From Hydractinia symbiolongicarpus (taxonomy: Eukaryota; Cnidaria; Hydrozoa; Anthoathecata; Hydractiniidae), in NCBI RefSeq assembly GCF_029227915.1, contig NC_079886.1, forward strand, positions 7,812,001-7,876,000: 64,000 nucleotides of DNA, in the 5' to 3' direction. This document shows positions 2,366 to 41,210 of this stretch, one piece after another. The position numbers and the translations under genes are program-made. Within the stretch, counting starts at the first letter, position 1; each line of letters starts with the position of its first letter. The notes under the pieces were generated by a model, which saw only the letters and a list, made by a program, of their open reading frames with translations, did not search any database and was not told the origin of the DNA.

Positions 2366-2396
2366 AATAAAGTATTAAAAAACAATATAAAACCAA
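522..2396 (-). pseudogene. LINE reverse transcriptase ORF, interrupted by one in-frame stop
   Basis: The reading frame runs from about 2396 to 522 and is broken once, by TGA at 1224-1226; both halves are in the same frame. The upstream half shows RT hallmarks: a thumb/finger region with GNYRGLKL, the FVDLEKAFDKVP palm motif, HQGSVLSPLLF, and the YADD catalytic box. The downstream half has a PHD-like Cys/His cluster (CGVC, then WVHKKC, about 1040-1115) and the RT C-terminal region with YLGDMLG, LYGSETWAV and LNWLGHLERM. In the family the stop position normally carries Trp (TGG), so one transition explains it. The missing endonuclease and the nonsense codon make it non-autonomous. The first dozen or so codons at the 2396 end are probably host sequence. 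Confidence 0.85.
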
Positions 2397-3082: not shown

Positions 3083-4811
3083 GTCATGCAATATATCAGC
3101 ATAAACTGGATGAGAGTATTGCAGAATGTAAAGATATTGTCAACAAATATAAAGCCAAGTGTTTACGGAACAATGTGAGTGTAGCTGGGTTTTTTTGTAT
3201 GAGTTATAACTATGTACTTACTTGAAAATTATATACATTTATTTTCTTTGTCTAAACTGACTATAGAATTTGGTTATTATTATTTTATTTTTTTGCTAAT
3301 TTTAAAAACTATATTGTATATTGTTGTAAAATGCAATTAATTTAAGTATTTTAAACTACATTTTTTCATATTGCATAAAAGCTTATATATAAAGTTTTGA
3401 GATTTAGATTTTTTTTATAAAATTATAAAAAAATTACTAAATACCACGAATTAGACATTGTGAGCTCTAAGTTAGTAGTATTTGTAATGAAAAGTTTTAT
3501 GTAACATGGCTTTTCTGCCTGTAAAATATAAAAGTATTTTCTTACGTAATAATACCTGAGCTCTGATCACTGGGATTGTTTGATAACCTGACTATCAGAG
3601 GTATATGAGGTATATTATCAGGACCAATTGGATAAATAATAGTATAGTGTGCATATAAATGATTATTATATTTTTTTTGCATAAAAGTCTAGCGTGTTTA
3701 TAGACTTATTTTATAGTATATAATAGAAAAAGATGATAATGGTTGTTAGGAATGTTTAATGAGATTTCTCATGCTTGAGTCAGTGGTCAATAACTATTTT
3801 AAATAGCCATGAATTTTTTATAACCTGCAAATATATCTTTATCCTGAGATAAAAATCTTTGAAAAATCTATGATAAAATGTGTTAGAATAGGTGTTGCAT
3901 TGCTTGTGACATAAAAAAATGTTGATTTTTTTTACTATTTTAGTCTTCACTAGATAGTCTTCACTAGATAGTCTTCACTAGATAGTCTTCTCCTTTTTTT
4001 TAATTAGTCGCTTTAACAATTATTAAATTCTGAAAATCCACACTGTTTACTTTATCATCGTGTCTCTCTTTGCTTTCTTTTTGCAAATGTTGTTGCTGAG
4101 AAAAGTTATGTGTACTTTTTACCTGGATACAAGTACATACATTTATGACCTGGCTGCTACTGCACATGACAATTTACACTACATTTTCCATCATCTATAA
4201 TTGTGATGTAGATTTAATCAACCGGATAATCTAAAATAATGATTGCCTAAGAAACATTTTAAATGGCGAATGAAGTATAGATTTAATTGAAATCAGGCCT
4301 GTACAGCAAGGCAGATTTGCAAGGAAAAAATGTGTGATTTCCTTTAATTAAGCTCATCATCTCCAATCTTCATGATTAAAGTGGAAGTGTTTATAATGGA
4401 GGTATATGTATACCTCCATTCACTCATTAAAAATGTATTAACTGTAAATTGTTGTTCTGTTCATCATCAAGTTATGGAACAGATAATCGTTACAGGTCGA
4501 ATTATTGAAGCAGAAATTATTGAGACAGGGTCTAGAAAGTACAGAAGTAATATTCTATGGCATTTGATTTATTTATAGGATTGCTATTGTTTTTGCATGT
4601 TTAGGTGGAACCAAAAGTGTTTGTGAAGTCTATTGAAGAATCTGTTGGACGCACCATTTGCATGATTGCCAAGGAACAAGGAGCATTTCTTATTGTAATG
4701 GGTCAACGTGGTTTAGGTGTAATTAACCGCACACTACTTGGTAGTGTTAGTGATTACGTGTTGCATCATGCTAATATTGCGTTAATTGTTGTTCCACAAA
4801 CAGAAATGTAA
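3083..4811 (+). CDS. Universal stress protein 1, 5' exons missing
   Basis: Two exons are visible: 3083-3174 and 4605-4811 (stop TAA). The first is preceded by ACTTCAG and followed by GTGAGT. It encodes a helical segment ending in DIVNKYKAKCLRNN and corresponds to exon 3 of the neighbouring USP genes; its opening GHAIY matches the opening of exon 3 of the USP at 23947. The last exon carries ESVGRTICMIAKEQ and the ATP-binding signature GQRGLGVINRTLLGS, then VSDYVLHH and a hydrophobic last strand, as in ATP-binding USPs. No exon 1 or 2 was found between the LINE and 3083. The 5' part either lies left of the window, with the LINE in its intron, or has been lost. An AATAAA lies at 5032-5037. The product is probably a cytosolic nucleotide-binding stress protein if the 5' end exists. 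Confidence 0.75.
3941..3990. repeat. 14-bp tandem repeat, about 3.5 units
   Basis: The unit TAGTCTTCACTAGA is repeated without mismatch inside the intron of USP1. No function is apparent. Confidence 0.9.
4395..4420. repeat. Perfect 12-bp inverted repeat with 2-nt spacer
   Basis: The arm AATGGAGGTATA is followed by TG and its exact reverse complement. It lies in the USP1 intron about 185 bp before the last exon. It could form a hairpin in RNA or DNA; it has no recognised role. Confidence 0.85.
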
Positions 4812-5913: not shown

Positions 5914-7058
5914 ATGTCTGGTAAAAAATTATTTGCAGTTTGTATTGATGGTAGCAAACACAGCGAAAGAGCCTTTGAGTGTAAGCGTTTCTTTTTTACC
6001 TTATTCGGGCCAGGGGTGGGTTGGTTCCCCCAGTTAATCCCCCAGTCCAAATAGGGTTAACTTATCCCAGGGTAATATGTTTTCTTTTTAGGGTATTGCA
6101 AATGTGCTCATCGAGAGGGGTATACAGTTGGTTTAGTACATATTCATCAGTTACCATCATCACTTGGTGGACTATATGGTAAGGATATTAAAATGCTCTA
6201 ATAAAATGCGCAGTCTCTATTAAGCACACTTCTCTAATAAAATTCCCCGTGAAATATGTAGTAACTTTTGTCTCTAAACGTCTCCTTTAGTCAAAAATAG
6301 CGTTTGTTTTCCTCTGCAAATTAGTATTTTATCATCAATTTACAACAAATAAGGTATTTCGAATGCTAGTCTCTTTTTTAATGCCTATCTTCAGTGTACA
6401 TTCTCCCTCTTTTATTTGTTTTTTTTTTTTTTAAATGTAATAAACTTTGATGATAGAGCATGTTAGACCTTGATTGTTTTTATGTTAAACTTGCTTTGAT
6501 TATAAATGTTATAAAACACTTTTAATTTCAAATTTTAACAAACTTTTTAAACATTTAATTGTAGAGGATGGTCCTGGCCTGCAAGTATTGGTGGATGAGT
6601 CAGTAACAGAAAGTAAAAGAATAATAAAAAAATATCAAGAACTATGTAAAGCTAAAGGGGTGAGAGATTTACATCTTGTTGTTTTGTCATCTCATTAATG
6701 AAAATATTGTCATACTAACGTAGACAAGTTTCATTACAAGTCCTTTTTGTTTTCAAATGTTTTCTAAAAATCTAAGTGAGAAACATTTTGATGTTAAAGG
6801 TAGATGAATTCTAGCATGTTATTACTAATATTTATCGTCTATTATTTTTAGATTACTGCTTTAACGTTATGTCAGACCAACCAAGGTTCCATTGGTCAGA
6901 CCATCTGCAATATCGCAAAAGCAAACTCAGCTGAAGCTATTATTATTGGTCAGCGGGGGTTAGGCATAGTTCGGCGTACTTTTCTTGGCAGTGTTAGCGA
7001 CTATGTGTTACACCATTCACATGTACCAACAATTGTGATTCCAACGACAAAACAGTAA
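5914..7058 (+). CDS. Universal stress protein 2 (151 aa)
   Basis: Exons 5914-5980, 6092-6178, 6565-6659 and 6852-7058 join in phases 1, 1, 0 with GT-AG borders, giving 151 residues and stop TAA. The ATG opens MSGKKLFAVCIDGSKHSERA; the Asp in CIDGS is the usual nucleotide-contacting acid of the USP beta1 loop. Exon 2 gives beta2 (GLVHIHQLP), exon 3 an amphipathic helix, and exon 4 the signature GQRGLGIVRRTFLGS (G-2X-G-9X-G-S), then SDYVLHHSHVP and strand beta5. The length is normal for a single-domain USP, and all fold elements are present. ATP binding and dimerisation are known for this subfamily; the physiological role in animals is not established. It is expected to be cytosolic, as no signal peptide or membrane segment is seen. 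Confidence 0.9.
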
Positions 7059-10600: not shown

Positions 10601-10935
10601 AATTGAATGGGTGGGTGAACATTTTTAATTAAGTGTAGTCTCTTTTATTCTTTCACATTAATAAGTAGATCAACGATATAAAGAAAGCTAATAAAAATAA
10701 TTTTCTCTTCTAGGTTACACCAAAAGCTTTCTTAGTCTCCATGAACGAGTCTGTGGGTAACACAGTATGTACAGTTGCTAAAGAGAATGATGTAACACTT
10801 ATTGTTTCTGGCCAACGTGGGTTAGGAGCATTTAGAAGAGCCATATTTGGTAGCGTTAGTGATTATATTCTTCATCATTCCGAAGTTCCTGTGGTTATTG
10901 TGCCTCCACCAATTGGTCACGAAAAGAAAGAATGA
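7648..10935 (+). CDS. Universal stress protein 3 (159 aa)
   Basis: Exons 7648-7717, 8919-8999, 9751-9857 and 10714-10935 are joined in phases 1, 1, 0 to give 159 residues. It starts MSLTKKFTLLCADGSEHSER; exon 2 reads GIVHVHCLPTLPGFG, exon 3 GGDIIATDLYSQM, and the last exon NESVGNTVCTVAKEN with GQRGLGAFRRAIFGS. The ATP signature glycines and serine are intact. The loop between them (AFRRAIF) differs from USP1, 2, 5 and 6 but is shared with USP4, and all four exons have exactly the same lengths as those of USP4. The two are therefore the most recent duplicate pair in the cluster. The C-terminus VPPPIGHEKKE is basic-acidic. Introns 1 and 2 contain GCGAAA/TTGCGG-type dispersed repeats. Confidence 0.9.
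9483..9490. promoter_or_regulatory. CRE/ATF-type palindrome in USP3 intron 2
   Basis: An exact TGACGTCA inside the intron between exons 2 and 3 of USP3. It could be an intronic enhancer site or chance; no expression evidence is available. Confidence 0.2.
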
Positions 10936-12206: not shown

Positions 12207-14676
12207 ATGAGTGAACACCGAAGATTAATCTTGGTATGCATTGATTCAAGTGATCACAGTAAAAGAGCTCTTGATTGTAAGTACTTTCGTCCCTCTCTTA
12301 TAATGCTTTTTTTTTCAGTACACAAACTGGTCCTTAAAATAAATTGTCTATCATTAGACAATTCAGTAAACAACTGCCAGCAGGTACTACACGTGTTGAT
12401 AAGAAATCTTAAAGATATAAATAGGTTTAAAATGGGTTAGATTAGAATATTGTCCCTGATAACTTTATGTTTCACAAAAATCGATGTCAATTTTTTGCAT
12501 TGTTTTTATTTTTTGATTATAATTATATATTATATTTGTGTGATTTGGCAAAAAAATTATTTACCAAAAACAATTCTTTTGGTTGTCATTAGTATTATTA
12601 CCTGACTGATACAAAAAACCAGTTAGTATGAAAAAATCCGATGATTTGATTGGTTTACGGCTTATTAAAACAGGGCTTTGTATGGAGCCATACTAACCGG
12701 TTTGGAAGCCATTATTAAAATGATAACATAAAAACGTAAACAAATAAATACATTTCCATAGCACACAAAAAATATAAAAGTAGCTCACCTCGCAAGCTCT
12801 GTCTGTACTTTTGACCTTGGGCTTTGTATTTTACAGTACAACATCAAAACCGGTCAGTATCCGCTAAATATAAAAAAGTTTCATTTTGGGGGGAAAAAAT
12901 CAGAAAAAAATTTTTTTTTTTGCAATTTTTCACGTATAGTCGTAAATTATCTCCCCTTTCAAACACTCTATACCAGGTTACCTAGAAATATTAAGGTTGT
13001 GTTTTTTTGTTTTTTTTAAAAAATGTAGCAACTGCTACCTCATAAAAAACTATTAACAACTTGCATACACCTGCACATTTTATTGTTAATGAAACTTTCC
13101 TTTTTATTCAAAATAATTGCTTTAATGCAAACAACTTGTATGATTTCTTTGCTTTAACTGGTATGTTTTAGGGTGTATTAAGGAGATCTATCGGAAGAAC
13201 GATGTATTGGGGCTCCTTCATGTCCATGTTGTTCCAAGTCTTTCAGGTTTTGGTAAGTTTGTGTGTCGTTATTTACATCTGTTTTTGCTGGACAAACAAC
13301 GATACTTTGCTTGTGTTGGCAATTGTTTGTGCCTTTATGCGAGGAATTATTTTTGCAGCAGGTTAGCGTTATTTCTAGGCTTTCATAAATACATATGTGA
13401 TGTTCTGTCTTGTGCTTATATATAATTCGAAACACATAAAAGTGACCCAGAAACACACAAAAGTGGTGGAGCTAAGCTGTTAGGAAACTTTTTCTTTTTA
13501 TAGGTTATCAGTTAATTGTTCTGATAATAATAAATTATGAATACTACAAAATTATGATTTTTTCCTGTGGCTGGTCATGGCATACAAGTTGAAATTCGAA
13601 GTGTAATAAATAAGGTTTACTATTTAGGAGGTGATATCGTTGTCACGGATATGTACTCAGATTCACTGCTTCTAAGTATTGCAGCAAGTAAAGGTTTGAT
13701 GGAAAAGATGAAGAGCTTTTGTGAAGTGAGAGGGGTAGGTTACCAAAAAATGTGTATCTTAATATTCGATTTTAAACACAGTTCTCGCTGTATACACATA
13801 CAAATTTTAGAACTTTTAGCAATCAAGGCCACAAAAAGATTTGTAAGTCCATGAAACATCGTGTAGGGCTGCCACGCTTCCTCAAAGCTCCTTAATTCTC
13901 CTCAGTTTTATTCCTCAAAAAAAACTCCTTAAATCTTCTCTATATTTTCATGAAATTTCTCCTTAAATCTCCTCAGTTTTAGTTTCACATAATAAATAAA
14001 AATGCTTGTTTCCCTTACTCATGACAGTACAATCGCCTCAATAATTCTCAATTTCTTTGTATCCTAAAATATCCTCAATTTTTATATGAATAACCCATTG
14101 TCTTTTCTAAAAAAAGTTATTCCTAAATGGAACTAAACTTAGCACAGTTGTAATTTGTTCTAAAATTTCTGCTTTATTTGTGACGTCATCAGAAGCTTGA
14201 AGTTTGTCAAAAATCTATTTACTTTAGTCCTAGCACGAATTTCAAGATTCTGTTTGAACTTTCTGATAGCCAAGCGAAAAGTTGTTTTATGAAGGGCTGT
14301 GAACCCTGCACACCTTCGGTGTTACAAAAGGGACTGTTACTTTCTCAGCATGGAAACTATTTCCATTGTGATGACTTCAAATAGAAAGCAACTAAAAATA
14401 TTTATGCTCATAAAAGCGTCTTTATTTATCACTTTTTTGATTCTTTTTTTCTAGGTAACTCCTAAACTCTTTCTTGAAGCTATGAACGAATCAGTTGGAA
14501 ATACTATCTGTACTATTGCGAAAAAACATCATGCTTCACTGATTGTGTGTGGCCAAAGGGGCTTAGGAGCATTCCGAAGAGCCATATTTGGTAGTGTTAG
14601 TGATTACGTTCTTCGTCATTCATCAGTCACGGTCGCGACTGTCCCTCCTTCACTGTTTCCACAAAAATTCAATTGA
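12207..14676 (+). CDS. Universal stress protein 4 (159 aa)
   Basis: Exons 12207-12276, 13172-13252, 13628-13734 and 14455-14676 (phases 1, 1, 0) give 159 residues, stop TGA. It starts MSEHRRLILVCIDSSDHSKR; exon 2 is divergent (CIKEIYRKNDVLGLLHVHVV), exon 3 is GGDIVVTDMYSDS, and the last exon has NESVGNTICTIAKKHH and GQRGLGAFRRAIFGS. The exon lengths are the same as in USP3. The C-terminal strand is less conserved (SDYVLRHSSVTVATVPP), with Arg in place of the usual second His of LHHS. Intron 3 contains CTCCTTAAATCT-type repeats. An AATAAA lies at 14889-14894. The reading frame is intact, so I call it functional; relaxed constraint is possible. Confidence 0.88.
13862..14095. repeat. CTCCTTAAATCTCCTCAATTTT-like degenerate repeat in USP4 intron 3
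   Basis: Several imperfect copies of a CTCCTyAAatCTCCTCAgTTTT motif follow one another. The same motif family occurs in intron 1 of USP5 (17078-17185 and 17385-17435). It is a pyrimidine-rich dispersed repeat, not coding. Confidence 0.6.
14181..14188. promoter_or_regulatory. CRE/ATF-type palindrome in USP4 intron 3
   Basis: An exact TGACGTCA about 270 bp before the last exon of USP4. The function is unproven; see the finding on the three CRE palindromes. Confidence 0.2.
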
Positions 14677-16887: not shown

Positions 16888-22340
<5,453 letters not shown>

Positions 22341-23946: not shown

Positions 23947-26624
23947 ATGGCAGACGAAGCAGCACCAATAGTCAATGAGGGAAAAGGGTTACCATTAATT
24001 TGTATCGATTCAAGTGAACACAGCATTCGCGCGTTAGAATGTGAGTATGATTTGATAGCTACTTTTTCTTTATCATCTTTACGCTGAGAATTTGATTTCA
24101 AACACAGAGAAAAGGGTGTTGTTCGGCAGGTTTTTACGTTTCCGCATGGTAGAATTTACAATGCCCATGCGCATCACATCAATTATATTCGTTTGTAAAA
24201 ACGTATCATTAGCAATTCGTTCCTTTTTAATAGGAATACACCTTTGTTGCACCAGTTTAAGTTGAATTTTTATATAGCAACTGTTGTTGCACGGTTAATT
24301 CGGTGGTTGATCTTTACGCTTTCAAGTATTACTTTAATTGTGTTTTTATATGCAATTCACGTTTAACGCAGCACCGTTTTTGATTGTTTTTAGGGTACTT
24401 TTTATATCTTCACAAGGAAGGAGACACAGTTGGTTTAGCACATGTACATGTTTTACCTGATATGCCAGGATATGGATTATTTGGTATGTCAAGTTTGGTA
24501 TAACTCTATATTAATGGCCGTATTCTGTTCAAAATGGCGCCGCCACAGCTTCATTTCAGATCCCCTGCAGAGTAAATAATTTGCTGACGGGTAAACCAGT
24601 AGATTTTTTTTCTGATTTACGACTGGTCTCTGTATTTAAAAATTTGTCTATTGTCGGCCATAAGAAAGTCGCGCTAGGTGCACGAAATAGCAGTCCCCAA
24701 AAGAACCGTACGGAGGAGATTTTTATTTTGTTTTTTCACGTTCCTTGTTTAGTTTAGTAGTCTAGGACCAACCAGAAAGTAAAGCTTTGAATTCCGTTTT
24801 AAACGTTTTAACGCTCCGGCATAACAGATTTCAGTCATTGTAAAAGTAATAATGTTGGGGTTTGGAGTTTTCTTTTTACCATTTTTTCTTTCTTTGTTTT
24901 TATGGCATTAATAAATTTTTATGCTTATGCGTATCACTGTTAAGATGAATATTCATCCAATTTTAAGATCTTGCCTAGGAGTGTACATCCAGAAAAAAAA
25001 ATATATCTCAGATGTTTTTGTGTTAAAATGTATTTACATAGCTGTGCGATCTTGGGTACCTTTGTTTAATGTTTCATTGTGGTTAGGTCATATGCAATTA
25101 TTTTCTTGCTCCAGATTTACCTTTGCAACTTTAATGGAAACTACTTCCAAATATTAAAAAAAATCTCGGTTACCGTTTTAGCTGGACGGGGTAAAGACAG
25201 TTGTCCTATGTTTCTATTTGAACTGAAGCTGTGAGAATATTATATACGCCTGAAAGAACCACGCTGCACGGACTCTATACGAATGTGCGTTTGGTTTACC
25301 TGTTCTAAGCCCTTACCACTTAGAATTAAATTTTGAACTTTTATCCGAACTGCTGAAAAAAATGCTAGCCGACTGTTTTTGTTATGACAGGGTAACAACC
25401 GGTTGTAATCTGTGTTTTTTTTGGTGAAAAAAACATTACCACCCGAAAAGCTGTATCACTATGAGCGCTTTACTAAGTTTACGACATACTGTATAACTTT
25501 ACAAAGGCTCTTTATCTGGATGTGCGAAACGGTTTACCTGCACTGAACGCTGAACGTCAGGATTGCGTATCGCTGTAAGCACCCTCTACCTCTACTAAAA
25601 GCCCCCCAACTCGGTAGCTGACTGTCAACCAGTCACTTGCGAATGTCGCTTTTGAATTTTTTTTCCTCGCCCTAGGTCATCGGGTATATGAAGAGGCTCA
25701 TGCAACCAAATATTTCAAAGATGGTGAACCTGTTGCAACCATGTTCAATCAACATCAAATACAGGAAAGTGTGCGTGAGAGTAAAGCTATCGCTGACAGA
25801 GCAAAAGAAAGATGCCAAGAGAAAGGGGTAGGTGCATGGATTCGACTTAGTTTGCATTTATCCCTGCACTACAACTTTTAAGCCACTCCCAGCCACCATT
25901 CACTGTAGCATTCTCTTTTTACCCTGAAAAGTAAAAGAGATATAGTTCAATTGCTAACCGACCAAAATACTTGTTTTGACGTAACGTCACAACGTTGATA
26001 AATTAGATTTAGACGTCAATGCGTTAAATTAAATTAGTGAGGCTATTGTATTTAAATTTCCATTTAAAATGTATTCATAAATGTACCCTAGATAGCTAAG
26101 AATTATTGTACACGTTTTTTATATATATAAACAACCGAGTTGCTGATTGCTGATGCTAAGTTTTGGGCCGAAACCTAAGTAACAGTTGAGCCGCTTGACA
26201 GGTTGAAAATTTGATGGGTTAATCAACGTGTCTTAGTTATCCTTCTTAGCAACTCCGGGATAGGAAAATAATTTAGCCCTCGGAAACTGAGACAGGATTG
26301 AAAAACAAAGTTGCCTATAAAAAACCCCGGATAATAATCAAACAAACGTGTAAAAAGTAGGACTATGTTAATCTTCAGAAACCACTTCTTACTGTGTTAT
26401 ATACTTTTTAGGTCAATGCCAAAGTGCTCGTGGAAACTTCTCAAGATTCTATTGGCCATACGATCTGCAAAATAGCGCAAGAAAACAACGCCTCTATGAT
26501 TGTGATTGGTCAACGTGGTTTGGGTACGATACGTCGTACCTTCTTAGGTAGTGTTAGCGATTACGTTCTCCACCATGCACAAATACCGGTGCTTGTTGTG
26601 CCGCCATTACCAGAGGAGAAATAG
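23947..26624 (+). CDS. Universal stress protein 6 (182 aa, longest of the cluster)
   Basis: Exons 23947-24040, 24394-24483, 25676-25827 and 26412-26624 (phases 1, 1, 0) give 182 residues. The N-terminus is extended ([20 protein letters not shown]) before CIDSSEHS. Exon 3 is 45 bp longer than in USP3-5 and inserts a stretch around [20 protein letters not shown] between beta2 and the helix. The last exon has [20 protein letters not shown] and [15 protein letters not shown], ending VPPLPEEK. All ATP-site residues are present. The inserted loop region is the most variable part of USPs and often tunes dimer contacts; that role here is inference. Exon 3 starts GHRVYEE, resembling USP1 exon 3 (GHAIYQH). 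Confidence 0.9.
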
Positions 26625-29117: not shown

Positions 29118-32100
29118 TTACTCCGTGTCAGAACCATGATGTATTTCAATAACAGGTGGAGTGCGTGTGACAAATGTATATGTTTCACTGTCACTAGCCT
29201 CACGCCGAAGTTTTGCATGTTTACAAATTTCAGCAGATTTTGACTGTAGCATATCATTTGGAGCGTCTAAGTATTTTGTATTGTACACCATAGCAGATGC
29301 GCTCCGTGGACGTTTCCGAACGATGATTTCAAAACCATTGTCGATTTCATCTTCCACTTCGTTACACATGGATGAGTTAGAATTACATAACACTAAAATA
29401 TTAATTTGTTTGTAAAGTTTGTAAATTTCCTTACAGACGAAAAAACGAGAAAGTATTTTTGTGATGAAGAAATGCTTATTGACCAGGTTAAAAGTAAGAA
29501 TTTATTGTTGTCTTTTTTATAATATTTATATTTTTTTTAACCTACGTGTACTAATCTCATGTATTGTGATTATAACTTCAACTAATTTTTAACAGAACGA
29601 AAATAATCTTCTACTAAGCGCGAGGACTCGTAAACAGAAAGAAAAACTCAAATTTTAAAGTTAACCGAACTCCACACTATTGTGTGTTACTCCGATCTCT
29701 GAACATAGTTTTATGGCTAATTAAGTTTGCATTAAAACAAAAAAAAAACACAATAAATTAATGACAGTGTATATTGTTCCGTTTTATTTTGTTCTGAAGT
29801 TCAAGAAAAATTTGATCCGCTTAAGATTAATTTGATTTCAAATCTACTTTTAGACACATGCCATATATGCGTTAAAAATTTTTAATTTTCAAAAAAGACG
29901 TTATTTGACATAAAAAAAAGTGATTCGCGACTTTTTGATTTTTAAAGTCAAAAAATTCTGAGAATTACCAAAGTGCGTATAAATATAAAAAGTATTTTTA
30001 TTTTAATGTATACAAAAGAAAAATACCTGATTGTATTGTATAGTTAGGTAAACTAATGGAATTCATTCCATTTGATACGTGAGATGCGTATGAAGGAGGC
30101 TTCGATGTTAAAATAGAAAGTTTTTTCAAGGCCTGTTTCGATTGATCATTGTTTGTTAAAACAAAACTGCTTTTTTGGTTGCATTTTTCTTTCTCTGCTG
30201 CCTAAACACAAAATTACAAAATTATTATCGGCATGACTATCATTTCCTAGACCCTATTACCGTTCTAAGCGTTGTTTTTCTACTCTCGAGTTTATCTATA
30301 CATACAGTTCGGACATAAACTTTCACTACTGTTTTTAACTTGGTAATATTATAATGTTGCAAGCATAGAATGCTGTTGGTGACACGCTAAAATATGTCTG
30401 TCTTATGGTATTTACAAGTGGATATATGTAATCATCACCTCGTCTAATGCTTTGTCAAACTGCTGCGGTCGTGTGTTGATGTTGTTATTTAGAAACTCGT
30501 TTGAGTCAAGTGTGAGCTTGCTGTTCGCACGATCCATACACCAATTCTGGGTCTACAATTGAACTAACATTATCAGTCATTATCAGAGAAATTCAAACAG
30601 ATTTTTTCATTCTTAAGTGGATATCTTATTGTCAGAACTTTCCGTGGGAAAAATACATTTTACATTTTCGAGATTGAACAAGTTTTAACAAGATTTTGCG
30701 GGAATTTATTTTACGCATGATTAAAATTTATTTATTTCAGATTTGGAATATATTATTTTTAGTATAATTACCCATTAAGATTTATTTAAGAGTTTTTTAT
30801 CAACTATAGTCAGCAAGGGCTTCTGGAAAATAAATCTAGCATCTAAAAATATCGCGAAATTTATTCTTCGTGGTTAAAACTTTTTACATTTTTGCCGAAT
30901 AAAATTTTTGTTTTTAAAGATTGCAAATCCGCGAAATCTTTACTCAAAAATTTCTAAAAAAAGAACAGTTTTATTCGTGTATTTTAGAAGAAATAAATGG
31001 CACCTTCGCTTGTACTGCCAGAGTGAAGAAGAAAACCAACAACATCTAAAAATAAATTTCATAAATTGCTTAACATTTTAAGTTAGTAATAGTTTAAGAT
31101 TTTTAATCAAACAAGTAATTTTGTAACAGTGAAGTCCGTGTTTCGTCCAATTCGTTAGTGAAGATGAAAAACCACTTCACAAGTTTAAATATAGAAACAG
31201 TTCATATGCTTATGAAACGACCTTCCAAACCCTCAGAGAGAACCAATAGTCTCCAAGAAGCCTATATTTAGCAACTTTGTTATGATCGTTAGACTCAGCA
31301 AAGAGAAATGTTAAAGTATGACATTCTCAATAGATACTTACTGTGAAGCAATTTAAAATTGAGAAGAACAAAACGGTTGCAAATTTATCTGGATTTTCAA
31401 GAGGATGTTGTTGCAGCAAGATTACAGCCAACAAAAATATCATCATTGAAATCAGCATCCTAAAAAAAAATTTTTTTTTTCAATCCACTAAATTAAATAC
31501 TCGCAAAGAAAACTTTTGAGAAAGCGTTAAAAAGAGGATAAAAGCAACAACTAGATTAGAAATATAGTATACACAATGGGCTACCTTGGTTGGTCTTATG
31601 GAGTAGAAGATTTTTTGAAAAAAACTGTCACCTCTGCCCTCTGGTCTAATTATATAGATTTTAACTTCTTCTCCCTCTAATGTGCCTATGCACAAAGTGA
31701 AAAGGTAATATGATAAAAAAAAAAAACAGGAGTAGAAAGAAATAGAGAAAAACGTTGGTAGTAAAATAAATAATGGGTTTATGTCTTTATATTCAGGTCG
31801 GGTTATATTGGAAGGTTTACGTCTTTTTTGGAACACAAGATAATTAAGAACGGTGTTTCATATTTTTGTTAGACTCAATTGGTTACTTACAGGCAGTAAT
31901 GTGTTAATGTTGAACAGCGCTTGCCATTATTCCAAACATAGTAGATACTCAGAACAAAGAAAATCTAAAAAAAAACCCATAATGATGGGGTGGATGACTT
32001 ATCGTCTTTACACTTTATTTTTGGCCTGTGGCAGAAAGTCAAAGAAGTATATAAATTTTTAGTATGTACTAATAAAAGTAAAAATCAAAGAATAAGATGA

Positions 32101-35100
32101 TGAAAAATTATTGGAAATATATACGTATATAGTTGTTAACTTGATTCAACTATTTTTTTTCTTTATGTAAATTATAAAATCAGAGAAAGCTCCAGCAACA
32201 ACTGATTAATAATTCAGCAATCGTACCGTTGTCAGCATTAATACGCAAGCCAATGTAACATATCCCTGGATATCGTTTGAAAGTGGCCAGCAACTAAAAC
32301 AAAAGAAAATTGTTGTTAATTCCCTGTGACAACATTGACGATTACTTTGACTTAATAAAACTTAATATAACTTAATAAAAATAACAATGATTGGTCAAGT
32401 CAATTCCAGATAGTTTTGCATGATAAGTTTTTCGAAACGCTTTAGCCAATTAAATTGTGTCCCTCACTGAACGTTAATCTCATCGTATAGGAAAAGTGAA
32501 CAATAGAAGTTTACAATTGAAGAAATCTGATTAAAATAATATGAAAGGAAAGTGGGCAGTAAGAAGAGGTAACATAGAGCGTATTCGTATGTGAGCCATC
32601 CATACAATGTATTTTCAAATTTGTTATTTGTGTATGTTGTATCACATCTCTCTCCTGAGATCAGATTATGTCTTAAACAAATAAAAAACATACATGAGAC
32701 AATTATTCAACCATTCAACTTACTTTTGATTGTGCGTATTTCGTGTATATCCAATAGTAAGTGAAAATGCAATGCAATATGCTATAACAAAAAGGAATAG
32801 TGCTAATAAGCTATTAAATATTTTTGTGATTAAAACTTTTTATTATTATTATTTACACACGTGTAGCACTAAAAATATAAGACCACGAGAACTAATAATC
32901 AGTTCCTGGAGCTTTCTCTGATTTTGTAATTTACATAAAGAAAGAAGATAGTTGAATTAAGTTAACAATTAAGTAAAAATTCCACAAGCGTATCTTGACA
33001 GAGTTTTATCTGCTGACTAAATTTCAGCTTGCGTTATTTGCTCTTAATTGCAGTTTGTTCTGTTCATAAATTCATTATGCCATTTTTACCATTTGATTAT
33101 TTCAATGTATTAACCATTTTAGCTACAAACCTTATTAATTTAATGCTATGAACAATAATGGCAACGTGACAACTTGTAAATTCAGTTTGAATTGGTCACC
33201 ATACTATACCTGCTTGTTATAGTTATGCCTATCAACACTAAAACCCACTAGCAGGACCTTTTAAATACTTATTAAGAACTTAGGAATAATAAATTACCCG
33301 ACATTGCACTCCACCATGCTTTATTTTTAGTAATCTCTCTCCATCCACAATAATACAACATTTCAGTAGAGCATAGCAAAATGACCATTTGAATCACAAA
33401 GATCAGAAAGCCAGAGAGAACATTGCACTGTGTCTAAGTAATAAAAAAGAGGAATGTAATAATGAAATGGTACCTCTATTCTCTATCATCACTATGAAAA
33501 TTGAATAGGCTCCAAGGTTTTGGTTAGAAGATGCAGGTTGGGAATGATCAGACATTTGGTTGCAAATACTTTGAATAGCACTACTTGTAAAAAATTTTTT
33601 TTATTGAATTTATTTAAGTTTAATGGTTTTATTTACCTGCGTATCCACTCGATAAATTCCAGCAAAAATAAGGCTTTCCATAATAATTAACATTAATATT
33701 CTCAAAAAGTGAATGGAACTAACGAAGACAAAGTCCAATCTGGAAACGAAACAGTTATGTTAAGGTTCATAAATAAGCAATGTCAACTGTCAACACATAC
33801 AGTCATTTTGTTGTGCTGTGGTGATGACACAAAATTTGTAAAGTCAGAATTAAATATCAAGTGCTTCGCAGTTCACAGTTATAAATTGTTGCTAGGATAG
33901 CATTTTTTGTTTCAATTTTTTTGTAAATACATCTTTATACATTCATATGTATATAACTTACCTATTTCGACAAACCATACACTTATCCAATGTTTTCTCC
34001 ATTCGTATAGGTTCTGTTAAAAATGAATTTCGTCGAATACATTCAGTATCTACCGTACCATTTTCTCTATTGTATAGCATCCAGTACGCTTTATCATCTG
34101 ATAGTCTTCGGTAACACCATCTGCAACCTGGTTCTTTTGAATGACATGGGGAGTCGTCTGTGTAGCCAATTAAACGGCGTAAACCTTCTTTTAGTCTTGT
34201 CACTAATACCAAACTGAAAGAACAACAATTAAATTTACTGCTGTGTCTAAATTTCACTTTAAAATTAAGCTTCTGTGAAAATCTTATTGCAAAAAAGAAT
34301 CTTTTCCAATTTTAATTTGGTTTCTCTAGCATTCTACTCTACATCCGTTACCTTCCACATAATCAGTGTTCTTTGCTTACTTTTAATCAACGAGATTCTA
34401 GAAACTCTGGAAATCAAATTAAGTTAAAAGAAAATTAAAAAGCAAAAGTTTGAAAATTACATCTTTTGATTGGAAATGGGAATTTACTTATAAAGCAAAT
34501 ATGAGGAAATGTGTATCATTGTCTTTCTTTAACCCTATTTAGGCAGGAGAGGGGAGGATACTTTGAAATCTTGGTGTAACGTCATGTGTTTTTTTTATGG
34601 TTACTCATCAGTTAACAGGTACTCCCCGACTTTTCAAAGCCCCCAAAATGCCGGCCTGAGTAGGATTAAGCGTCTCGTAATTTTTGGATGCTTAATATAG
34701 ATTATATCCACGCGTTCTTTCAAAAGCATGGTAAAATTAAGAAAGAGTAAAATTTAACATGCATACCTGTGTCGTGCAAAGGTAAACAGCAATATTGCGA
34801 GGAAACAAATGGATACTATGCAACTCACTTTCAATGGAGTTGGTAGTTCCTATAAAAAATAAAAATTAAAACCGTATAGACAAAGAGGGGTAAGATTCCA
34901 TAAAGGTATGGTTGACATATTTCTAGTTGACTACTATTCCATAATATTTTTTGCTTTTTTATTAAGAAATCAAGCTATTTTGTTTAGAGAAGAAATTCTG
35001 GCGTTGATTAATTTAGCGATTGCCTAAAATAGCATTTTTAGCGATTTTTAGCATTTTTGACGATTGATAAAAACCATTAAATTTAAGTTTTTAATTTATT

Positions 35101-38100
35101 TCGATGTATTAAGCGATATAAAGACGAAGCAACGTTACACAAAGTTTTAATTGATCAAAATATGTTTTTTGTACACATTCATAACTACCATGTTTTGAAA
35201 ATTGAACATAAAAATTGGCAATTTTTTTAAAAAATTTGTATTTCATTTAGTCGAGTAGTTCAAAATTATTTAACGCTGATTTAAATTGGCGTATTAGGTA
35301 TATTTCCCCCGCGCTAAAATTCCTTCTCTTTTTAGTATAATGAGGTATAATATGATGAAACGTAATAAATGTGATCCGCATAGACGAACGTTAACATTGC
35401 TAAGTTTTCAGCTTTTGAGGGAGGTGTATTTTTAGTACCTGGATTATAACTTTATCAAGTTCTTCCTTTGTGAAAAATAGTTCGGCTAGATTATCTGCTT
35501 TGACACCTTCAAACAGTATATAAATATCATACGAGTCTGGATTGTATTTATATATTTTGTTTTCTGATGAATACTTCATTTTGATTGTATATGGATCACC
35601 TTTAAAGCGTGCGTATGTATCTGAAAAAAAAAACATGTTGCTCATAATAATTTGAGCAACCCAGGAATCTTTATATTCTCTTGACTAAAAGTGTTGTTAT
35701 TTTATTCATAGAGTTTGTATTTTATAAGACAAAGATATTAACTAGTAAGGTCCGCTTATTTATAGTACTAACTGTCAGAAAATGAGCTGATTTAAGATTA
35801 TCATTGTTACCATAAAAGCTGGCTTTCAGCCTCCTTAAATGCATTATTAGGTCTAGTCATACCTAAAAAAGTCGTCTTTCCCAATTATTTTAAATCCTAC
35901 GTTACTTTACCTACACTTTGATTCGATAATGTATAAACTAAAAAGGCAAAATTTTGAAAATATTTCTTGCCTACCATGTATTTGAAGCGACTTTCTCACA
36001 GTGTGTACTGCATCATATGACACATCATTTTCAAAAGGTAAAGGCCAGTTCATTTTACCAAATTGATGTGTAATTTTTCCTTTCAAATTTCTTATGTAGA
36101 TCATTACATTCTTCTTCCCTTCTTTTGTCAGATAGTCTTTTACTTTGATAACATAGGTATGTTTTTCTTTTTGCTTTAAGCGAATCAGTGTCGGCCTGTT
36201 TGTTGGTATATAAGAAGGATCTAAATGCAATGAAAAAAATTTGACTGTTTTGTAAGAAATTTGCCTTAAAAAAGTTTTTAATCAAGAGTAAAACATTATT
36301 AGTCTATGTTCAAACGAGCACCCTGCCTTAACAACATCAGAGTCTTAACGTACCATTGCATAGCCTCTCAGTAATATCATCTCGATTTAGGTTTAACTGA
36401 CGACTTTGCAGAGACATGGTATGGTTATTATCCATTCTATAAAAATGTTTATCGTGATTTGCAAATAGAGAATAAACGTGGATGTTCTCATCTTCAGCAT
36501 TATTTATCTGTCCCAAAGTTTCATCAGAAAATACTTTCTCTTTGTCTGATATTATGGCGATAATGTACTTCATTTCGTGATGATTTTTCCTTCGTCGACT
36601 TTCCTTCAAAGTTTCTACAGTAGCATTGATCATTGTGGATAGTTTCATCGGTAATGAGTTTGGCATTGTACGAAGAAACTGATACAATTTTGATGGCTTT
36701 GAAAACGCTCTGCTGATTCTAAAAATACAACTTTTTAGGTCAGTAAATAAATCGTCCTCATTCTAGTACTCTTTTCATTAAAATTTTTAATTTAAGCTGA
36801 TTTCGAGATTATCGGATTGGTGAAGTATCACCAGATTTTTAAATCCGAAAAAACTGATAAAGAAATGTTTATAGTTCGCAAAAAAACGAAAGATGCAACT
36901 TTGGATTATTTTTTTCGTAAAAGAGAAGAGAAGTTATAGGATTTTTTGTTTACATAAGAACCTAGCCAAGTTTAATAAATTCTTGCTTGAATGTTTTCTT
37001 AGAAATAAAAATTATATTGTTTTTATAAAGTTTTATTATAAAGAATCAGCATGCGATCGGTTTCATGTCTGTATCTAGCTACATATTCAAATTTAGCGTT
37101 TGATTTTTTTAAAAAAGAATAATGACTTACGAGCATGAATCATCAATGGAAAATGCCACTTTAATATTTGATTGACGGGAATAATCCGCAAAAATGTTCG
37201 AAACAAAAGTTTCAACCTTGTGTTTGCGATGGTTTTGCGGAAAATCTGGATGAAACATTAACACAACAAGAAGATCCTTTGTATGCTCTAAGAATATAAC
37301 ATTAAGAAGTTAGCAAACTCCCATTAAATATCGATTTTTCATAAAACACGTCACTAAGTGTCTGAACTGTGGAGTTTCATTACTGTTGCTAAAGCGAAAT
37401 GAAATAAAATCTCAGTACTGTCTACCTAAGCAAAGTTTTTTCTTCGGATATCCACCCGTGTTGCAAAAAGCATCATCTTCATTCATTATTCCACTGCGAC
37501 ATAATGGTTCATAAAGGCAATGGTAAGACCCTCGTCTTTTTTCATCCCTTTTGATATCGCCGGGACAATTTAGAACCTAAAACAACGCAGGGCATAGAAA
37601 TTAAACTTTCGTTATGATTGCTTTGAACTAACAGCAACAAAGACAGAGTTTGAGATTATTGCAGATACCATATTGGTCCGAATCAGTTAGGGTACAAGAC
37701 CTAGTGAAAAACGTCGGTGCAAAAACAACAGCAATTTGATTTATGTTTTCTTACCTTTCTAACTCTTTGCCATATGTTCAACAGAGCTGGTAGTTGTTTG
37801 GTATCATTTTTTAAATGATATAATATTTTCACCATATTCTCCAGACTTCCATCAGCTAGTCTTTTATATAATTTTCCCAATGGTTTCCCTCTAACATAAG
37901 AATAACTTTCACCCCAAATATATGCAGCAGTTCGGAATGCGGATGTTGGAAAAAGTAATACTTCTGGGGCCCCTATAAGTAGAGAGCATATGCTTGATAC
38001 AGAAAATATAACTGTGTTCTTACGTTATCAGTGATTGGTGGATAAAAAATGGGAAAAAGTGAATAATTCTTCAAGTTTTCGTTTTTTTTATTATTAACAT

Positions 38101-39257
38101 GGTCTCCTTCAGAGAATGCAACATCAAACTTCATTACAACTAACAAAAAGCTTTATTTTTTATCGTTTCGTGCAAAAAAAATGCATTATGTGACTACTGA
38201 TCACATTTATCCTTAAAAATAAATCTTTATAATTATTGAACACCATTTTCCAACAGTGTAAAAGCCTATTTATACGTACCAACTGCGTTTATTAATGTTA
38301 AATTATGCTTTCCTTCTTTTTGTAAAAGCTTGTTTAACTTCGGACTTATCCATTGGTAGAACTTCCTTCCTTTCACATGTATTGCGCCACGCCCAATAAA
38401 CTTGATTTCATCATTTTCACCATGCGTTGAAACATTTTTAGCAATATCTACTGGTAAATGTTCCTCCATATTGGTCAGAAAATTTGTGTCAAGAAATACC
38501 TAAATGTTTGATTTAAAAGAGAAAAAATGATTGGATGATTACAAGGTAAAAAATTGAATTTAGTATATTTCGTATCGTGTGAGGCTGTTTTTTCATTAAT
38601 GTTTTCTGAAGAGAAAAAAGTGAACAAAACAAAACAAACAAGCGTGCATTTGAAAAAGTAACAATTATTGATATGTATTTTCCTTTGTGCCAGAAGATGT
38701 CAAAGTACACAAATTTAAAACTGATGTTTATAAGTCTTTCCTTTCCCTGGTGTGACTATTCCTCATTGTTACAGCTTCTGTTGTTCTGGCTTTCTTTGCA
38801 GCCACATAAATCTCATTCAAATCTCTTCTTACTAAATATAGACTTGAAAAACTTACAATGGAGAGGAATGCAGCCAATTCTTCTTTTGTATCAATGTTAG
38901 CTATTGCAATGTCCATAATTAAAAATCTGTACATGACAATGTTTCTTTTAAAAAGTGACGTTATGGACAGAAACTTGTCTTTAGTGAGCCACGTGTGAAC
39001 TTCTGTACGGTTATATTTTCTTGAGTGGAAATATTTTTCGTTTACATTCTCCATAATGCAGCAATATAAGCCCATGTTACTGTGCTGTTTACAGCCGTTC
39101 ATTGTCACGGCATGTCTAAAACAAAATTGGGACGGGTCTTTGAAGCAAAATCCAAAGGAGAAGGTATGGCCCTCGTTGTAGTCACGTGGCGTCCTGTAGT
39201 TTAGTCCGCAGTGCCATTTGTGAAGGTAAGATTGGTATTTTTTACCAGCATCCACAG
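29118..39257 (-). CDS. GH19-like / VWA-like / seven-transmembrane receptor, copy 1 (5' exon not found)
   Basis: Twenty exons join with GT-AG borders and consistent phases: 39257-38857, 38499-38280, 37972-37755, 37576-37426, 37287-37131, 36718-36354, 36220-35975, 35620-35439, 34849-34767, 34213-33962, 33739-33637, 33433-33298, 32781-32724, 32293-32227, 31964-31891, 31459-31342, 31045-31004, 30552-30439, 30201-30027, 29392-29118. They give about 1144 residues; the signal-peptide exon upstream of 39257 is missing. Residues 1-85 are Cys-rich. Residues about 85-280 resemble GH19 (EELAAFLSI, LDTN, GRGAIHVKGRKFY, PEVLLFP, AAYIW). Residues 280-330 are a Cys-rich linker, 333-500 are VWA-like without DxSxS, and 504-646 are probably beta-sandwich. 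TM1 is about 650-670; a Cys-rich loop covers 675-757; TM2-7 cover about 760-955 with secretin/adhesion-GPCR-like features (Cys before TM3, NCWPL before TM5, FSILN in TM7). The tail is 187 residues. No GPS motif is seen. The role as a cell-surface receptor is inferred. Confidence 0.75.
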
Positions 39258-40280: not shown

Positions 40281-41210
40281 TTATTCGGTATCGGTACGAC
40301 TTTGGCGAGATATACTAACTCTATTCGAGCTTAACTTGCGGTATAGTAACTGCCGTAACTGTCGTAGCAAGAATATATAAATAACCGCATCGGTTATGTA
40401 ACCAATCACGTAAAGAAGTAATGTCGCAAGTTCGATATAAATATCCTCGATTTCTAATACAAAAACAACAATAGTTGTTATCAATTCAGGTACGCCGGAA
40501 AAAAATAAAAACGTAACTATGATATAAAACGGGACAAAGTTTGACATTTTCTTATTGTTGTCATGTCCCGAACATTGTTTTACTACAGTACTGATTTTAT
40601 CACGGTTAATTCTAGTTTTCCTCCTTTGATTGGGATTTAACTTGATAAAAATATATGTGTACACGATCGCACAAGTTATAATAAATCCTGCCTCAAAAAC
40701 TGGAAATAAAGTTGTGTAGATAAATTTTAAAAGATAAAAATTCTTATAACGTTGCACGTAAAACATCCAAGTGTTATTGATAACAGCATACAGCCAAGTT
40801 GAGAACAGCGCCATTCGTATACGCTGTGACGTGGCATATAGATGATATTTAATGTTTAATTTTACTTCGAGAAATCGATCAATGGTCATTAACATTAAAC
40901 CAGTGGCCCATGATAAAGCTAGAGCGCACATAGTTATGCTGGAATAAGTCGTGAGTGTGGCTTCATGCACTATATGGCTGACGCTATGAATAACTTGTGT
41001 GCACATCATTGCAATTTCGAAAACACTCAGATTGATCAAAAATATCCTTTGGTTTTCCTTTACGCGATTAGTCGAACAAAGTAGATATATACCAAGAACG
41101 TGTAGGGCTATAGCAAATAGATAAATAGCGTATAGAATTACATGAAGCATTATAGCGACAAGCGATTCCATCTTAAGATAACGATTCTCCTTCTTCAATA
41201 TAATTTTCAC
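40281..41210 (-). CDS. Intronless rhodopsin-class (class A) GPCR, orphan
   Basis: A single open frame encodes 309 residues; an alternative start is Met14 (codon at 41169-41171), which gives a short extracellular N-terminus without a signal peptide. Seven hydrophobic segments are visible. TM1 is VILYAIYLFAIALHVLGIY. TM2 has NLSVFEI, with Glu where most receptors have Asp2.50. TM3 ends in LMTIDRFLEV, a DRF variant of DRY. TM6 has FFSGVPE, lacking the CWxP Trp. TM7 ends in TDAVIYIFL in place of NPxxY. The tail is short and Ser/Arg-rich. Such intronless, atypical class A receptors are common in cnidarian genomes; the ligand is unknown. It lies upstream of, and in the same orientation as, receptor copy 1. 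It is intact and probably functional. Confidence 0.88.
   Translation of the reverse strand: MKIILKKENRYLKMESLVAIMLHVILYAIYLFAIALHVLGIYLLCSTNRVKENQRIFLINLSVFEIAMMCTQVIHSVSHIVHEATLTTYSSITMCALALSWATGLMLMTIDRFLEVKLNIKYHLYATSQRIRMALFSTWLYAVINNTWMFYVQRYKNFYLLKFIYTTLFPVFEAGFIITCAIVYTYIFIKLNPNQRRKTRINRDKISTVVKQCSGHDNNKKMSNFVPFYIIVTFLFFSGVPELITTIVVFVLEIEDIYIELATLLLYVIGYITDAVIYIFLLRQLRQLLYRKLSSNRVSISRQSRTDTE

What the first reader, a model, noticed from the sequence alone, without database searches (positions are those of the whole stretch)
29118..39257. A seven-transmembrane receptor with GH19-like and VWA-like ectodomains
Seen: 20 consistent exons encode a protein with Cys-rich, GH19-like and VWA-like ectodomain parts, then seven hydrophobic segments, then a long tail. 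Known: secretin/adhesion GPCRs carry a Cys before TM3, a CW motif before TM5 and an ILN-type motif in TM7, and these have counterparts here. Adhesion GPCRs usually have a GAIN/GPS cleavage site; I see none. Inference: a lineage-specific receptor family that may read chitin-like or other glycans. I know of no described family with this combination.
Basis: partly seen in the sequence, partly recalled or inferred. Interest (0 to 1): 0.9.

Follow-up and report, generated by a model that had tools for sequence, protein, structure and literature searches.

The report
Hydrozoan receptor carrying a phage-lysin-like domain
Two neighbouring genes in a colonial hydroid encode a receptor-like membrane protein whose outer part is related to the wall-cutting enzymes of bacterial viruses, apparently with the cutting chemistry lost, joined to a seven-helix membrane part that resembles latrophilin-type receptors; what it senses is not known.

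Summary
The gene lies on the minus strand of Hydractinia symbiolongicarpus (LOC130621522). A tandem paralogue has matching exon boundaries, dN/dS 0.28. A Clytia protein aligns over 93% at 31% identity.

The ectodomain carries a Cys-rich start; a GH19 domain nearer to endolysins than to chitinases (PHROG_181 E=4.4e-6) that keeps 14-15 of 25 scored core positions but 1 of 9 functional ones, so probably a pseudoenzyme; a VWA-like fold without MIDAS, from a low-confidence model; and a Cys-free juxtamembrane part without a canonical GPS motif. A TM2-TM7 profile scores latrophilin-2 above all 6000 block shuffles, though the database E-value is only 0.34. An 81-89-residue CxxC...CxxC loop follows TM1.

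Best reading: a GAIN-less, class-B-like 7TM receptor with a domesticated lysin fold as sensor. Ligand and G-protein coupling are inference. New variant of a known kind.

The parts
   Evidence: homologous to the N-terminus of P0002
38857..39257 (-). exon 2: Cys-rich N-terminal part and start of the GH19-like domain
   Evidence: metagenome fragments P0004-P0008 stop or diverge at the same place
38280..38499 (-). exon 3: GH19-like core (D158 for the catalytic acid, E167 kept, GRGAIHVKG motif)
37755..37972 (-). exon 4: end of the GH19-like domain
37426..37576 (-). exon 5: Cys-containing linker
37131..37287 (-). exon 6: VWA-like part, first half
36354..36718 (-). exon 7: VWA-like part, second half
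35975..36220 (-). exon 8: juxtamembrane part, no Cys, no canonical GPS motif
35439..35620 (-). exon 9: juxtamembrane part, continued
34767..34849 (-). exon 10: TM1
33962..34213 (-). exon 11: long loop TM1-TM2 with CxxC...CxxC
33637..33739 (-). exon 12: TM2 (IH...E...GI)
33298..33433 (-). exon 13: TM3 with its N-terminal Cys (C816) and start of TM4
32724..32781 (-). exon 14: TM4
32227..32293 (-). exon 15: Cys-Trp-Pro before TM5 (C879 W880) and start of TM5
31891..31964 (-). exon 16: TM5 end and short loop TM5-TM6
31342..31459 (-). exon 17: TM6 and start of TM7 (SILN)
31004..31045 (-). exon 18: TM7 end
30439..30552 (-). exon 19: cytoplasmic tail
30027..30201 (-). exon 20: cytoplasmic tail
29118..29392 (-). 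exon 21: cytoplasmic tail and stop codon
53384..63611 (-). tandem paralogue LOC130621523 (P0002), residues 228-1162 in the window; its exons 1-3 lie beyond the window (L035: 3139-3080, 1212-811, 221-3)

Best explanation
A cell-surface receptor family known so far from hydrozoans. A signal peptide sends out a Cys-rich region, a non-catalytic GH19 domain of endolysin affinity, a VWA-like domain without MIDAS and a Cys-free juxtamembrane part; these sit on a 7TM bundle of class-B (adhesion/secretin-like) ancestry with a long tail. Proposed working: the remodelled GH19 groove binds a ligand, most plausibly a bacterial-wall or other glycan, without cutting it; the VWA-like and juxtamembrane parts pass binding or force to the 7TM core; since no GAIN/GPS tethered agonist is seen, activation would not use aGPCR-style self-cleavage. 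Shown: the exon joining, endolysin-type GH19 homology, loss of the catalytic/sugar-contact set, absence of a canonical GPS motif. Supported but not proven: signal peptide use, VWA-like fold, class-B 7TM ancestry. Inferred only: ligand type, G-protein signalling, any larval or immune role.
For: Gene model and selection. One-chain relatives. GH19: PHROG_181 E=4.4e-6 (Hydractinia) and 3.1e-4 (Clytia); a 7-sequence endolysin HMM scores 35.6/30.6 bits against best shuffles 6.0/7.1 (730 and 741 of 1000 shuffles were listed by HMMER); the tree holds the chitinases together at 100, apart from endolysins and receptors. Loss of chemistry: 1 of 9 functional positions kept in each of 3 receptors, 9 of 9 in each of 7 endolysins; 7 of the 8 replaced positions carry the same new residue in all three receptors. 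GH19 and Cys-rich parts are the most conserved (49.0% and 50.7% Hydractinia/Clytia, against 23.5% VWA-like and 34.9% TM2-7). VWA: among the 50 Foldseek rows and 50 VIA rows shown, the ones I can place from title and recall are VWA-containing proteins and I saw no other fold; several titles name only a complex and chain identities were not checked. 7TM: TM2-TM7 three-sequence profile against the ADGRL2 segment 22.1 bits, 0 of 6000 block shuffles reach it; pairwise Clytia 81 (0 of 1000), Hydractinia 72 (2 of 1000); the window's rhodopsin-like GPCR does not beat its own shuffles.
Against: Pfam reports no GH19, VWA or 7tm_2 match. Both AlphaFold models have low confidence (mean pLDDT 32.5 and 48.5), and the 7TM model's Foldseek matches are not significant and mix GPCR classes, rhodopsins and non-receptors. 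The ADGRL2 match in the database search has only E=0.34, stands behind two designed bundles, and is not listed with narrower alignments; with single-sequence profiles and HMMER's bias correction on, 9 to 15 of 3000 shuffles do as well. The long TM1-TM2 loop is unusual for a GPCR. The receptor GH19 branch is very long (2.8) and its place among endolysins has support 63 only; PHROG_181 also hits the host's chitinase over 61 residues (2.3e-5). Isoform X2 of the window gene and the Clytia protein show no clear signal peptide. Nothing tested shows ligand binding, expression or G-protein coupling.
Confidence: 0.6

Rival explanations
1. The same anatomy, but an adhesion or recognition molecule rather than a signalling GPCR: GH19-like and VWA-like parts bind matrix or partner proteins and the 7TM bundle is an anchor with a cytosolic scaffold (CxxC loop and long tail).
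For: VWA folds are mostly protein-binding modules (recalled). The loop between TM1 and TM2 is 81-89 residues with CxxC...CxxC, unlike a standard GPCR, and TM1 is poorly conserved (4 of 28 identical Hydractinia/Clytia). No canonical GPS motif seen.
Against: TM2-TM7 keeps class-B landmarks in one collinear alignment at 34.9% identity between genera, more than the tail (20.8%) or the loop (20.0%).
Confidence: 0.21
2. A still-active, membrane-anchored lysin: the GH19 domain cuts peptidoglycan, using Asp158 as acid and Glu167 as base.
For: Asp is a conservative change and Glu167 (base) is kept at the same 9-residue spacing.
Against: Water coordinator T->K, Q128->H, N134->F, N187->K and R196->L in all three receptors, H48->L or M; plant GH19 groups that lost the catalytic Glu are predicted to be inactive or weak, or lectins (PMC8547705, passages).
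Confidence: 0.05
3. The membrane part is not a GPCR relative at all but a convergent multi-pass protein; only the ectodomain assignment holds.
For: No 7tm_2 match in Pfam; low-confidence model; insignificant Foldseek matches.
Against: Collinear ADGRL2 alignment including TM2 IH/E/GI, TM3 Cys and Gly, Cys-Trp before TM5 and the TM7 Asn, beyond block shuffles for the three-sequence profile.
Confidence: 0.13

Closest known systems
GH19 endolysins of phages and bacteria (ELYS subfamily; PHROG_181, SPN1S endolysin 4ok7, PWe2 endolysin 9ms7)
   Same: Compact core of about 200 residues, same order and near-same spacing of AAF...E...GRG...Y...PE.L...A...W, Ile33 of the endolysin pattern, base Glu kept. 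The only PDB sequence listed for the receptor core was 9ms7, at a non-significant E 0.68.
   Different: Asp for the catalytic Glu; 8 of 9 functional positions replaced; Gly118 of the endolysin pattern lost; part of an animal multi-exon membrane protein.
Adhesion GPCRs, e.g. latrophilin-2 (ADGRL2, 9e51)
   Same: Long modular ectodomain, TM2/TM3/ECL2/TM7 landmarks in the same places.
   Different: No Cys and no canonical GPS motif before TM1 and, by recall of GAIN size, no room for a full GAIN in 148-151 residues; 81-89-residue TM1-TM2 loop with CxxC...CxxC.
VWA-domain proteins (Ku, ITIH1, ANTXR, TRAP, complement factor B)
   Same: Strand-helix order and fold matches over residues about 350-505.
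   Different: No DxSxS MIDAS motif in strand 1 (by inspection; motif recalled); no sequence match found in Pfam.
Hydractinia's own GH19 chitinases (L001, L002, same contig, 7.232 and 7.237 Mb)
   Same: GH19 superfamily, GRGAIQ motif.
   Different: Chitinase-type; group with bacterial chitinases (99-100) and away from the receptor domain.

Membership tests
GH19 (endolysin subfamily) | significant profile similarity over the catalytic domain | tested here: met
   PHROG_181 E=4.4e-6 and 3.1e-4; home-made endolysin HMM 35.6/30.6 bits, none of the listed shuffles reaches it. No Pfam match. Hydractinia's true chitinase also hits PHROG_181 (2.3e-5 over 61 residues), so that hit alone does not fix the subfamily.
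GH19 (endolysin subfamily) | two catalytic Glu and Thr water coordinator (E49, E58, T130; PMC8547705 section 7) | tested here: not met
   D158, E167, K197 in all 3 receptors: one of three kept
GH19 (endolysin subfamily) | substrate-contact residues at -2, -1, +1 | tested here: not met
   1 of 9 functional positions kept, the base Glu; Y106 was not scored because the region could not be aligned
GH19 (endolysin subfamily) | endolysin pattern I33, R109, G118, L173 | tested here: inconclusive
   I33 present, G118 absent; 109 and 173 were not placed
Adhesion GPCR (class B2) | class-B 7TM | tested here: inconclusive
   collinear ADGRL2 alignment E=0.34, 0 of 6000 shuffles for the 3-sequence profile but up to 15 of 3000 for single-sequence ones; no Pfam 7tm_2 hit and no confident model
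Adhesion GPCR (class B2) | GAIN domain with GPS before TM1 (called the distinguishing feature in PMC12716839, passages) | tested here: not met
   residues 525-672: 0 Cys in all three proteins; no H[LIV][ST] in either Hydractinia copy, one HVT in Clytia; no GAIN/GPS family listed in Pfam scans. The GAIN fold as such was not tested by structure.
Secretin receptor (class B1) | hormone-binding (HRM) domain | tested here: inconclusive
   no HRM listed by Pfam for the three proteins at E<=1, but Pfam also missed the GH19 part
VWA domain | VWA/Rossmann-like fold | tested here: inconclusive
VWA domain | MIDAS DxSxS (not required for the fold) | tested here: not met
   strand 1 reads VVLLFYPDFPQN (P0002) and MILIIADVNILSN (Clytia), by inspection; motif recalled

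The most novel reading that the evidence does not exclude
A lysin-type GH19 of bacterial or phage origin entered the hydrozoan lineage, lost its chemistry, and was frozen as the sensor head of a GAIN-less class-B-type GPCR that reports bacterial wall or biofilm glycans, making it a candidate for the missing receptor of bacterial settlement cues in Hydractinia larvae.
Probability: 0.2. Interest if true: 0.92.

Novelty: new variant of a known kind. Interest (0 to 1): 0.74.

Why it matters
If right, an animal receptor family has turned the fold of a bacterial-wall-cutting enzyme into a binding sensor on a seven-helix receptor. That would be a new route by which animals perceive microbes, and would give a testable candidate in a genus where bacterial biofilm lipids and polysaccharides trigger metamorphosis; the authors of a study on H. 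[quoted passage not shown] It would also be a receptor of class-B ancestry without GAIN and with a long CxxC-bearing first intracellular loop, useful for asking how such receptors switch on without a tethered agonist.

Tried and rejected
Splitting into two genes: rejected, because junction phases, the paralogue and the single-chain Clytia protein agree. Descent of the GH19 domain from the host's own chitinases: not supported (hhalign of the receptor core with them gave probability 2.9, E 0.016, in the same register around GRG). A first GH19 HMM of 12 sequences, mostly chitinases but including the endolysin-like L023, gave only 7.6/6.3 bits. DUF2070 and DUF2339 Pfam matches in the membrane part are below cut-off and taken as hydrophobic chance. 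Zinc-ribbon nature of the TM1-TM2 loop: only weak TFIIE (E 0.45) and ZNF622 (E 2.1) matches, left open. Classifying the 7TM by structure: the model is too weak; class-B GPCRs (PTH1R, calcitonin receptor) are among the top Foldseek rows, but the best E is 0.33 and class A, class C, rhodopsins and non-receptors are mixed in; VIA ranks a designed filament, TAS2R14 and Ste2 first. Viral contigs: no relative of the receptor GH19 part, nor of the bacterial GH19 query. Searches of Hydractinia's own adhesion GPCRs (PF00002) and of endolysin-type GH19 (phrog_181) in the genome, meant as better controls, did not complete. The Clytia protein as query found only the two known copies plus one chance-level hit (E 0.45) in the genome. 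mis-joined exon 14 to the paralogue through an ambiguous text match; corrected.
Full report
What is there. The finding concerns a gene on the minus strand. Comparing with the paralogue's N-terminus located the missing start: an exon at 46478-46418 encoding a signal peptide, ending in phase 1 like the acceptor at 39257. The spliced gene is 21 exons and 1165 residues with GT-AG borders throughout; intron 1 is 7160 bases and holds a complete single-exon rhodopsin-like GPCR ORF on the same strand (Pfam 7tm_1 26.2 bits, below its cut-off of 30.5). The database holds LOC130621522 isoform X2 (100% over 96%), LOC130621523 (84%) and a Clytia hemisphaerica protein (31% over 93%), all named only as uncharacterized. 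This names the organism as Hydractinia symbiolongicarpus. Isoform X2 starts at residue 73 of my model and the Clytia protein shows no clear signal peptide. I saw no transcript reads.

Second copy and selection. LOC130621523 is a tandem paralogue; residues 228-1162 lie at 63611-53384 in the window and exons 1-3 beyond it. Its exon boundaries match in protein coordinates, allowing for a 3-residue indel in the tail. Over 935 aligned codons dS is 0.304 and dN 0.085, ratio 0.28; by part the ratio is 0.10 for the end of GH19, 0.16 for VWA-like, 0.42 juxtamembrane, 0.20 for TM1 and its loop, 0.35 for TM2-7 and 0.48 for the tail. The Clytia protein as query found no third copy in the genome.

Spread. 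Full-length searches at E<=10 (single sequence) and E<=1 (profile) found only these three proteins. A search with the N-terminal 279 residues added six short metagenome proteins, 44-65% identical to the Clytia part over 28-48% of the query. Five of the six (P0004-P0008) carry the Cys-rich/GH19 start and stop or diverge where the window's exon 2 ends, which suggests the same intron in other species. The tool needs shared 5-residue words, so absence from Hydra or Nematostella is not shown.

GH19 part. Pfam reports nothing, but PHROG_181 (endolysin) matches at 4.4e-6 (Hydractinia) and 3.1e-4 (Clytia); a bacterial GH19 as positive control gives 4.3e-61. PHROG_181 also picks Hydractinia's chitinase over 61 residues around the GRG motif, so I built HMMs. 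The endolysin one (6 phage proteins and one bacterial) scores 35.6 and 30.6 bits, best shuffle 6.0 and 7.1; HMMER listed 730 and 741 of the 1000 shuffles of each. A chitinase one (11 proteins) scores 5.7 and 5.5. I placed 25 of the 26 core positions of the GH19 database paper (PMC8547705, section 7 read in full) and counted as kept the residues its endolysin column lists, with a few of the rarest left out: the receptors keep 14, 14 and 15; of nine functional ones they keep one, the base Glu, while the seven endolysins keep nine. Seven of the eight replaced positions have the same residue in both genera; this part (49.0%) and the Cys-rich part (50.7%) are the most conserved of the protein. I read this as a pseudoenzyme whose groove was rewritten before the Hydractinia-Clytia split and then kept. 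A 21-sequence tree holds all 11 chitinases, including Hydractinia's own two, together (100) and puts the receptors among endolysins (63) on a branch of length 2.8, so the donor is unresolved and transfer from bacteria or phage is inference.

Membrane part. Seven segments; hydropathy alone misses TM4 in the two Hydractinia copies and sees it in Clytia. The loop between TM1 and TM2, as I cut it, is 81, 81 and 89 residues, with CxxC...CxxC in all three. The whole-protein profile finds ADGRL2 at E 0.34, behind two designed bundles, aligned from TM2 to TM7 with TM2 IH/E/GI, the TM3 Cys, the Cys-Trp before TM5 and the TM7 Asn in register; narrower alignments do not list it. Because 7TM proteins share hydropathy, I shuffled the ADGRL2 segment within blocks of 6 and 10 residues: the three-sequence TM2-7 profile scores 22.1, best of 6000 shuffles 14.9; pairwise scores are 81 for Clytia (0 of 1000) and 72 for Hydractinia (2 of 1000); the window's rhodopsin-like GPCR does not beat its own shuffles (129 and 301 of 500 do as well). 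Single-sequence profiles are weaker: up to 15 of 3000 shuffles do as well. ADGRL2 had been chosen as the best natural multi-pass hit, so the test is somewhat favourable. The cut-out 7TM model (mean pLDDT 48.5) settles nothing. The 148-151 residues before TM1 have no Cys; the Hydractinia copies have no H[LIV][ST], Clytia has one HVT.

Reading. The best account is a GAIN-less class-B-like receptor with a domesticated lysin head. Ligand type is inferred from ancestry alone; the lost sugar contacts argue against canonical chitin or peptidoglycan binding, so a protein or modified-glycan ligand is open. In H. [quoted passage not shown]

Literature. Searches of the open PMC library listed no paper whose title or abstract start describes this combination; some lists were capped (one search showed 12 of 1,540, 12 of 24), and most listed papers were not opened. 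I read passages of PMC12716839 and PMC8262903, and passages plus section 7 of PMC8547705. The first names the GAIN domain as what sets adhesion GPCRs apart, which is why I do not file this protein as one.

Noticed in passing
window 40281-41210 (-): Complete single-exon rhodopsin-like GPCR ORF (Pfam 7tm_1 26.2 bits, below cut-off 30.5) nested in intron 1 of the receptor gene, same strand; tblastn (E<=1e-3) found no copy in the fetched 10 kb that holds the paralogue's 1.9 kb intron 1.
   Followed up: partly
window 4594-4798, 6894-7019, 10703-10907, 14444-14648, 22176-22301, 26454-26579 (+): Six copies of an exon that reads like a universal stress protein ([18 protein letters not shown]...), apparently a tandem gene family; family name recalled, not searched.
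   Followed up: partly
window 522-2396 (-): Two ORFs that read like a LINE-type reverse transcriptase; recalled, not searched.
   Followed up: no
window 33962-34213 (-): Loop between TM1 and TM2 with CxxC...CxxC kept in Hydractinia and Clytia, weakly like zinc-ribbon proteins (TFIIE alpha E 0.45): possible cytosolic metal site.
   Followed up: partly
window 21205-21687: Long low-complexity repeat read as Ile-Tyr repeats in one frame.
   Followed up: no
L001, L002 (G000:C12 at 7.232 and 7.237 Mb): Two neighbouring GH19 chitinase-type genes of the host, about 0.58 Mb from the window on the same contig, above the Pfam cut-off.
   Followed up: partly
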